Assembly: GCA_946478895.1 (NCBI GenBank)
Contig: CAMLDY010000081.1
Location: 1-11,587, forward strand
Direction: 5' to 3'
Source of the DNA: an uncultured Gemmatimonadota bacterium
Lineage (GTDB): Bacteria; Gemmatimonadota; Gemmatimonadetes; Gemmatimonadales; Gemmatimonadaceae
DNA length: 11,587 nt
Numbering within the stretch: the first letter of the stretch is position 1; the number at the start of each line of letters is the position of its first letter. The notes under the pieces are model-generated. The model was given only the letters and a program-made list of their open reading frames with translations. It was not told where the DNA came from and searched no databases. Shown piece by piece: positions 1,782-2,299 of this stretch. Position numbers and translations under genes: made by a program.

Positions 1782-1834
1782 GAAGACTACCGGCTGGAGG
1801 CCGTGGGCGAGCCGGCGGGAGGCCGCGGGCTGAG
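1782..1834 (+). repeat. Left arm of 53-bp inverted repeat
   Basis: The arm starts GAAGACTACCGGCTGGAGG and ends GGCCGCGGGCTGAG. Read against the reverse complement of 2247-2299, positions 1-21 and 40-50 are identical, with five mismatches in total. It contains two copies of a 13-mer, CCGGCTGGAGGCC at 1790-1802 and CCGGCGGGAGGCC at 1812-1824, 22 bp apart. It also encodes the last residues and the TAG stop of the minus-strand four-helix-bundle gene. Confidence 0.85.
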
Positions 1835-2188
1835 AACCCTGGCGATCAAGGCGTAGAGCATCTTCCTTACCCTGATCGTTTCGGTCACCAGAGAAACGTA
1901 TTCTTCTTCAGAGATAATCTTTGCGTCGCGGGCGAAGATCAGATGAGACTCGAGCTCGGAAGCGGAAGCTCGCGCGATGCGCAGAAAGCGGACGAACTCT
2001 TTTTCGCTCTCCTGTCTGCGACCTTCGGCGATATTTGCGGGGATCGAGAGCGCTGCCCTGAAGATTTGACTCCTCAACGACGAGTACTGATTGCCCCTGA
2101 TTCGTTTGCTCGCACGGTCGACGGCCAACGAAAGTGCGTGCGCTGTCTGCCAGACGCGGAGTTTCTTGAAATCGCTCACGACGTACAA
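1787..2188 (-). CDS. Four-helix-bundle protein of the 23S rRNA intervening-sequence (S23/IVP) family
   Basis: The product, up to 133 residues, has the hallmarks of the family (Pfam 23S_rRNA_IVP, TIGR02436): an N-terminal DFKKLRVWQTAH helix, the signature LSIPANIAEGRRQ, then the two helices SEKEFVRFLRIARASASELES and SEEEYVSLV...VRKMLYALIARV. Members lie inside 23S rRNA intervening sequences or stand alone on chromosomes. Related Avd proteins assist diversity-generating retroelements. Their general biochemical role is not established; they tend to be basic bundles likely to bind nucleic acid. The first start is TTG at 2188, just after an in-frame TGA. GTG at 2179 would give a start at VSDFKKL, closer to the family's usual N-terminus, and is a good alternative. 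Neither has a Shine-Dalgarno sequence. The last 15 or so residues, ending in PRPPAGSPTASSR, are encoded by the left inverted-repeat arm. The gene is intact and antisense to its neighbours. Family is secure, role unknown. Confidence 0.88.
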   Translation of the reverse strand: MYVVSDFKKLRVWQTAHALSLAVDRASKRIRGNQYSSLRSQIFRAALSIPANIAEGRRQESEKEFVRFLRIARASASELESHLIFARDAKIISEEEYVSLVTETIRVRKMLYALIARVLSPRPPAGSPTASSR

Positions 2189-2246
2189 TGACGAGCACCG
2201 TCAGCGGCGTCGCACCATTTCACCGCGCCTCCAACCACCCCTTCGC
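2189..2246. other. Spacer between the four-helix-bundle gene and the right repeat arm
   Basis: This 58-bp stretch lies upstream of the minus-strand gene and would be expected to hold its promoter. I see no clear promoter boxes. On the minus strand it contains a purine-rich segment (CGAAGGGGTGGTTGGAGG), too far from the start codon to act as a ribosome binding site. Confidence 0.3.
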
Positions 2247-2299
2247 CTGAGCCCGCGGCCTCCAGCCGGCCCGCCCCGGGCCTCCAGCCGGTAGTCTTC
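2247..2299 (-). repeat. Right arm of 53-bp inverted repeat
   Basis: This is the inverted partner of 1782-1834. It carries two exact copies of GGCCTCCAGCCGG at 2257-2269 and 2279-2291, 22 bp apart. The arm ends in GTAGTCTTC, 4 bp before the tgt ATG, so it occupies the place where a ribosome binding site for tgt would lie. A transcript from queA into tgt could pair the two arms into a stem of about 50 bp. Confidence 0.85.

What the first reader, a model, noticed from the sequence alone, without database searches (positions are those of the whole stretch)
1782..2299. A 23S-IVS-type four-helix-bundle gene inside long inverted repeats, inserted between queA and tgt
Seen: 53-bp inverted arms (48 of 53 matching) bound a 518-bp unit that splits the queA-tgt pair, with a lower-GC interior and an intact four-helix-bundle gene on the opposite strand. 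Known: the S23/IVP family was first described inside 23S rRNA intervening sequences, which are themselves stem-bounded insertions. Inference: this is a portable unit, either an IVS-like element living outside rRNA or a REP-like repeat pair that moves with its own small protein. A repeat-bounded free-standing copy would give a lead on how these orphan genes spread and what the protein does.
Basis: partly seen in the sequence, partly recalled or inferred. Interest (0 to 1): 0.72.

Follow-up and report, generated by a model that had tools for sequence, protein, structure and literature searches.

The report
Orphan protein gene inside mobile hairpins
A small bacterial gene of unknown function, first known from inserts in ribosomal RNA genes, sits here inside a pair of mirror-image repeats, and in related soil bacteria the same kind of gene and its repeats are scattered through the genome like a tiny mobile element, which gives a first lead on what this widespread orphan protein does.

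Summary
In detail: 1782-2299 is a 518-bp unit with 53-nt inverted arms (48 of 53) around an intact PF05635 (IVP/S23) gene, antisense between queA and tgt. It is not a one-off. In related Gemmatimonadota, 91 of 110 distinct testable IVP loci have such arms, and 22 of 29 in a later replication set; mock positions give 3 of 1964 and 0 of 178, PIN-toxin genes of the same lineage 0 of 30. The window's arm is a dispersed repeat (true copies in 7 of 148 genomes), found as gene-less inverted pairs and as pairs around an IVP. Complex arms co-vary with the IVP protein across different chromosomal sites (Mantel 0 of 999); heptamer-type arms do not. One orthologous site shows the gene-bearing unit, a gene-less hairpin, another hairpin family, or nothing. 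This is the anatomy of a REP/REPIN-RAYT system, but the protein is an Avd-like helix bundle; RAYT-type transposases were missed in 11 of 12 and reverse transcriptases in 10 of 12 related genomes searched. Best explanation: IVP is the cognate factor of a family of mobile hairpins. That IVP drives their movement is inferred, not shown. Ten literature searches found no such description.

The parts
1768..1781 (.). 14 nt between queA stop and left arm (AGGACTGAACTGAAG-like tip, resembles the AACTGCAACTGA tip of related arms)
   Evidence: sequence; related tips
1782..1834 (+). left inverted arm (3' of the IVP gene), 53 nt; REP-like, family GACTACCGGCYGGRGGCY
1787..2179 (-). IVP/S23 four-helix-bundle gene, PF05635/TIGR02436, 130 aa from GTG 2179 (mechanical ORF from TTG 2188)
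2180..2246 (-). 67-nt leader between gene start and right arm; probably holds the gene's own promoter (by eye only)
2247..2299 (+). right inverted arm (5' of the IVP gene), 53 nt, reverse complement of the left arm at 48 of 53
724..1767 (+). queA, flanking gene
   Evidence: PF02547
2304..3482 (+). tgt, flanking gene
   Evidence: PF01702

Best explanation
The unit is one copy of a REPtron-like mobile hairpin system whose protein is not a RAYT transposase but an IVP/S23 four-helix bundle. Shown: (a) IVP genes of this lineage generally sit between the two arms of a long inverted repeat; (b) the arms of the window's family and of six IVP loci of genome G017 are also dispersed without the gene, largely as inverted pairs (roughly 120-270-nt hairpins); (c) among arms of complex sequence, arm family and IVP clade go together across different sites; (d) hairpins and gene-bearing units are present at some orthologous sites and absent at others; (e) the protein is under purifying selection. 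Inferred: the IVP oligomer (a pentamer in its solved relatives) recognises its cognate hairpin, folded in single-stranded DNA or RNA, and promotes its copying into new, mostly intergenic places with host replication or repair enzymes; gene-less hairpins are the non-autonomous copies, the arm-IVP-arm unit the autonomous one. Stuttered copies of arm tips, the heptamer arrays that form many arms, and the joint replacement of both arms at one site fit copying by template switching, but this step is conjecture.
For: Arms at 91 of 110 distinct testable IVP loci (112 rows, two of them the same places as L137 and L143) against 3 of 1964 mock positions in the same loci (all three at one IR-bounded VapBC-like pair); threshold set on the first set, then 22 of 29 against 0 of 178 in 45 genomes not used before; PIN-domain genes of the same lineage 0 of 30. 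Geometry constant: 5' arm ends a median 79 nt before the start, 3' arm begins at the stop. Window arm core in 10 of 148 genomes, three of them inside a protein gene, so 7 real, 1-13 copies, often in +/- pairs; reversed control pattern 1 hit. G017: arm matches away from any IVP for all six families tested (17 of 20, 7 of 9, 7 of 13, 6 of 12, 17 of 20, 14 of 17 places at E<=0.01; families overlap); in 1.2 Mb all 5 IVP genes lie in inverted repeats. WIN, L086, L139, L140, L171 share the arm family, are at five different sites and form a supported clade (99/94). Mantel test of arm versus protein similarity, 60 complex-arm loci, 0 of 999. Empty and gene-less sites. dN/dS 0.03-0.28 in 14 of 16 pairs, 2 saturated. 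Y1 transposase PF01797 in 1 of 12, RT PF00078 in 2 of 12 genomes searched.
Against: No experiment and no observed movement. No catalytic function is known for the protein, so the moving enzyme is unknown. Heptamer-type arms (31 of 91) do not follow the IVP clade (181 of 999). 19 of 110 and 7 of 29 IVP loci have no arms at the threshold; 7 of the 19 are at the hppA-ychF site. G137 (13 arm copies) has one weak IVP match and G067 (arm and hairpin copies) none, though these assemblies may be incomplete (no tgt in G137). The same hairpins can bound a VapBC-like pair (L144), and G017 has three long-loop inverted repeats without IVP. No target-site duplication was established. The correlation rests on a few related clades, so pairs are not independent.
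Confidence: 0.6

Rival explanations
1. The IVP gene is a passenger. Long hairpins are spread by an unidentified enzyme, and short genes caught between two hairpins, IVP most often, are carried along.
For: A VapBC-like pair in L144 is bounded by hairpins of the same family as that genome's IVP unit. Hairpins persist in G067 and G137 without a detected cognate IVP. The protein has no known nuclease or polymerase.
Against: Of 30 PIN genes none is bounded, so catching is not general; all 5 IVP genes in 1.2 Mb of G017 are bounded; arm family follows IVP clade.
Confidence: 0.2
2. The mobile part is the IVP cassette (leader plus gene), which inserts into the loop of hairpins already present at gene ends; the arms are targets, not part of the element.
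For: At the L151 site G068 has the same arms with about 28 nt between them and no gene. At the hppA-ychF site arms differ between species (median between-locus score 11 against 60 within) while the position is kept. Arms often begin within a few nt of neighbouring genes.
Against: Arm family goes with IVP clade at different sites for complex arms, not expected if targets are random; the G068 state can equally be loss of the gene.
Confidence: 0.15
3. It is an RNA-level intervening sequence like those of 23S rRNA: the arms pair in the transcript of the host operon and RNase III cuts the insert out, so selection on the RNA stem keeps the arms matched.
For: Same parts as the 23S IVS of Coxiella (inverted repeats, S23p ORF, RNase III excision, heptamer repeats upstream of the ORF; PMC4990558, passages). 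At queA-tgt and hppA-ychF the flanking genes are co-directional, so one transcript could cross the unit.
Against: Of 109 loci only 62 have co-directional neighbours (51 antisense to the IVP, 11 sense); 34 have convergent and 13 divergent neighbours, where no single neighbour transcript crosses both arms. Dispersed gene-less hairpins are not explained. No rRNA family match at the unit or in 15 sources.
Confidence: 0.05

Closest known systems
REP/REPIN with RAYT (REPtron)
   Same: Gene flanked by inverted copies of a repeat that is also dispersed as inverted doublets forming hairpins; repeat and protein co-vary (as described for RAYTs in PMC2817692 and PMC3116915, passages seen).
   Different: Protein is PF05635, not a Y1/HUH transposase; arms about 60 nt (median) rather than 20-40 bp palindromes; several IVP paralogues per genome, each with its own arms; PF01797 not found in 11 of 12 genomes searched.
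23S rRNA intervening sequence (IVS) with S23p/IVP ORF
   Same: Stem-forming inverted repeats around an ORF of the same protein family; heptamer repeats in the Coxiella IVS (PMC4990558, passages).
   Different: Not in an rRNA gene; own position between protein genes; dispersed gene-less hairpins; RNase III excision untested.
Avd of diversity-generating retroelements
MITE
   Same: Short, gene-less, inverted-repeat elements, lineage-specific, with a gene-bearing partner.
   Different: No transposase in the partner; no target duplication established.

Membership tests
PF05635 / TIGR02436 (IVP, four helix bundle) | profile match over the curated cut-off | tested here: met
   108.7 bits vs 33.8; 108.1 vs 24
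REP-RAYT (REPtron) | gene flanked by two inverted repeats | tested here: met
REP-RAYT (REPtron) | flanking repeat dispersed as inverted doublets | tested here: met
   in relatives; not testable in the window's own genome
REP-RAYT (REPtron) | repeat and protein co-evolve | tested here: inconclusive
   yes for 60 complex-arm loci (0 of 999), no for 31 tandem-arm loci (181 of 999)
REP-RAYT (REPtron) | protein is a Y1/HUH tyrosine transposase | tested here: not met
   only PF05635 matches; PF01797 absent in 11 of 12 related genomes
REP-RAYT (REPtron) | GT(A/G)G tag at the foot of the palindrome | not tested
   -
23S rRNA IVS | lies inside a 23S rRNA helix | tested here: not met
   between queA and tgt; no rRNA match in the window
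23S rRNA IVS | inverted-repeat ends around an S23p/IVP ORF | tested here: met
23S rRNA IVS | excised from RNA by RNase III | not testable with these tools
   needs RNA
DGR Avd | acts with a DGR reverse transcriptase | tested here: not met
   PF00078 in 2 of 12 related genomes only; the window's own genome could not be searched
DGR Avd | Avd fold | tested here: inconclusive
MITE / DNA transposon | target-site duplication | tested here: inconclusive
   none recognised by eye at the window or at the sites; element ends not fixed

The most novel reading that the evidence does not exclude
IVP/S23 proteins are the protein half of a transposase-free class of mobile hairpin: an Avd-like oligomer recognises its own long inverted repeat and spreads it with host enzymes alone. 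The 23S rRNA IVS would then be an offshoot of the same element caught in rRNA, and the concerted replacement of both arms at a fixed site would reflect copying of one arm from the other.
Probability: 0.4. Interest if true: 0.92.

Novelty: new variant of a known kind. Interest (0 to 1): 0.82.

Why it matters
PF05635 is a very common orphan family (79 of 99 genomes of one family here, up to 14 copies) known mainly from 23S IVSs and as a relative of DGR Avd, with no function assigned. A tight link between each IVP and its own dispersed hairpin makes the function question directly testable (binding, hairpin gain and loss on deletion), and would add a second, nuclease-less kind of protein to the REP-type systems, whose spread is still poorly understood.

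Tried and rejected
Chance or composition: rejected. Arms as a fixed terminal repeat of one transposon: rejected, arms differ from locus to locus. Arms as an ordinary property of small or toxin genes: rejected, 0 of 30 PIN loci. RAYT or RT as the mover: not found in 11 of 12 and 10 of 12 genomes; other enzymes were not searched. Integron cassettes: considered and dropped from recall, because attC sites lie in direct, not inverted, orientation; no integrase search was made. Vertical descent of the window's unit at queA-tgt from the same insertion as G049/G087: rejected by protein identity (WIN-L166 47 of 102, L166-G087 82 of 103) and the tree. Rfam: no match at the units. Loci L400-L402 and L404 were fetched but not analysed. 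Structure: Avd similarity confirmed but not much above unrelated bundles.

Limits of the counts: loci are the top-scoring IVP matches of each search, not a random sample; two rows of the 112 repeat other places (L133 = L143, L135 = L137) and are left out of 91 of 110; five loci were dropped for short flanks, one, one. The score threshold of 40 was chosen after seeing the first set. Neighbour orientation uses ORFs picked by a GC3 rule of my own, not a gene finder. One search scored at most five candidates per genome, so its copy numbers are lower bounds. The tree's bootstrap had not settled.

Full report

The arms are a general feature of these genes. No genome is held for the window, so I used relatives. 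PF05635 matches occur in 11 of 13 genomes reached through queA loci, 79 of 99 of one family and 38 of 45 further genomes. I aligned the 400 nt before each gene with the reverse complement of the 400 nt after it. Of 110 distinct testable loci (window included) 91 score 40 or more, while 3 of 1964 mock positions at least 800 nt away in the same loci do, all at one place in L144, an inverted-repeat-bounded VapBC-like pair. The threshold was set on the first loci; in 45 genomes not used before, 22 of 29 loci pass against 0 of 178 mock positions. PIN-domain genes from the same 99 genomes pass in 0 of 30. In a Bacteroidota-type set 13 of 29 pass (19 at 30 or more) against 0 of 163, so the pattern reaches beyond one phylum but is weaker there. 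The geometry is steady: the 5' arm ends a median 79 nt before the start codon, the 3' arm begins at the stop, median arm length 60.

Two kinds of arms. Of 91 arms, 31 are tandem repeats, with period 7 or 14 in 24 of them (one shuffled arm of 91 is as periodic); 60 are complex. For complex arms at different sites, arm similarity follows IVP similarity (r 0.32, 0 of 999 permutations as high; 19 pairs with similar arms have mean identity 0.70 against 0.39 for the rest). For tandem arms it does not (181 of 999). The pairs come from a few related clades, so they are not independent.

The window's arm is dispersed. Its core GACTACCGGCYGGRGGCY occurs in 10 of 148 genomes; in three it lies inside a protein gene (my reading), leaving G137 (13 copies), G001 (10), G017 (7), G086 (5), G142 (2), G109 (1) and G067 (1). 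The reversed control pattern has one hit. Many copies are +/- pairs: gene-less pairs 117-268 nt long (L213, L218, L224, L225) and pairs around an IVP (L139 twice, L086, L200). The IVPs with this arm family (window, L086, L139, L140, L171) are at five different sites and form a supported clade (99/94). An arm next to an IVP match is also seen in G142 and G109. No cognate IVP was found in G137 (one match of 43 bits) or G067 (none), which speaks against a strict need, unless the assemblies are incomplete.

A closer look at G017. In about 1.2 Mb the arms of each of six IVP loci match other places far from any IVP: 17 of 20, 7 of 9, 7 of 13, 6 of 12, 17 of 20 and 14 of 17 places at E<=0.01, the families partly overlapping. 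Most of the strong ones are inverted pairs with loops of about 50-70 nt. In the L141 family the loops are alike too, so whole elements were copied; their tips carry stuttered partial copies (by eye). Of 42 inverted repeats with score 50 or more, 8 have loops of 151-700 nt: five enclose the five IVP genes there, three are another repeat class without IVP. The L137-type hairpin is found in 7 of 148 genomes, so the families are lineage-specific.

Presence and absence. G067 lacks a hairpin that G017 has, 34 nt standing for 246. At the site of the G019 unit L151, G068 (92% identical flank) has the same arms with about 28 nt between them and no gene, G049 has a hairpin of another family, and G087 has no element. 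For queA-tgt, of the 30 nearest tgt loci 25 hold queA on the same strand; 22 have spacers of 0-119 nt, the other three 249, 436 and 1408 nt, and none holds an IVP; five loci, including those of the near relatives G017, G142, G067, G001 and G086, show no queA within reach, so the immediate sisters do not give the empty site. IVPs do sit antisense between queA and tgt in G049 (L166) and G087 (L397), orthologous to each other (82 of 103) but not to the window's (47 of 102; tree): two independent arrivals in one spacer. G068 has about 23 nt there.

Arms change together. The hppA-ychF spacer holds an IVP in 18 loci; 17 were testable, 10 have arms. Among these 10 the median arm score is 60 within a locus and 11, about chance, between loci; only 3 of 45 pairs are as alike as their own arms. 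The tree needs five changes for that site, with nine of its IVPs in one clade (99/95), so at least part of this is one old insertion whose two arms were replaced in step. At two sites (L114/L118 and L089, L093/L150, L164) the unit lies in opposite orientations.

Surroundings. Of 109 loci the gene after the IVP is convergent with it in 85; both neighbours are sense to it in only 11 (simple ORF rule). The leader between 5' arm and start may hold a promoter close to the start codon (by eye); if so the 5' arm is not in the IVP's own transcript. The protein is under purifying selection: dN/dS 0.03-0.28 in 14 of 16 pairs, two pairs with the window saturated; many dS values exceed 1, so these are rough.

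How it most likely works. Everything but the enzyme resembles a REPtron: gene between inverted repeats, repeats dispersed as inverted doublets, repeat and protein varying together (RAYT features from PMC2817692 and PMC3116915, passages). But the protein is not a Y1 transposase; PF01797 is in 1 and PF00078 in 2 of 12 related genomes searched, and G017, with many hairpins, has neither. I therefore infer that the IVP oligomer binds its cognate hairpin and promotes its copying by host enzymes. The 23S IVS (inverted repeats, S23p ORF, RNase III excision, heptamer repeats; PMC4990558, passages) has the same parts in rRNA; Avd, a relative (PMC10053308, passages), works with a reverse transcriptase on structured RNA (recalled in part). 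The main rivals are that IVP is a passenger, or that only the gene cassette moves into hairpins.

Literature. Ten searches of the open PMC library gave no paper joining this protein family to dispersed hairpins; subscription papers and preprints were not searched.

Noticed in passing
L144:7330-8414 (G099): A VapBC-like toxin-antitoxin pair bounded by hairpins of the same family as that genome's IVP unit; the only non-IVP gene pair seen in such arms.
   Followed up: partly
L265 and L248, L252 region of G017 (C12 599208-599682, C5 426758-427270, 502634-503129, 436838-437280): A second dispersed inverted-repeat class, arms about 110-140 nt, no IVP.
   Followed up: partly
window 2869-2892, 3481-3546, 9204-9265: Short tandem repeats of a TTCCCGC-like heptamer inside and after tgt and elsewhere; heptamers also build many IVP arms.
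   Followed up: no
L001:6077-6415 (G001): After queA of the closest relative lies a 339-nt inverted-repeat unit (arms 89, loop 161 nt) without IVP.
   Followed up: partly
hppA-ychF spacer, 18 loci such as L103, L120, L154: A recurrent IVP site across the family with different arms in different species.
   Followed up: yes
L139:9550-10177 (G017): A second IVP unit of the window-type arm family about 4.7 kb from the first.
   Followed up: no
L403 / L324 (G126): queA-tgt spacer of 1408 nt with another reading frame and no IVP.
   Followed up: no
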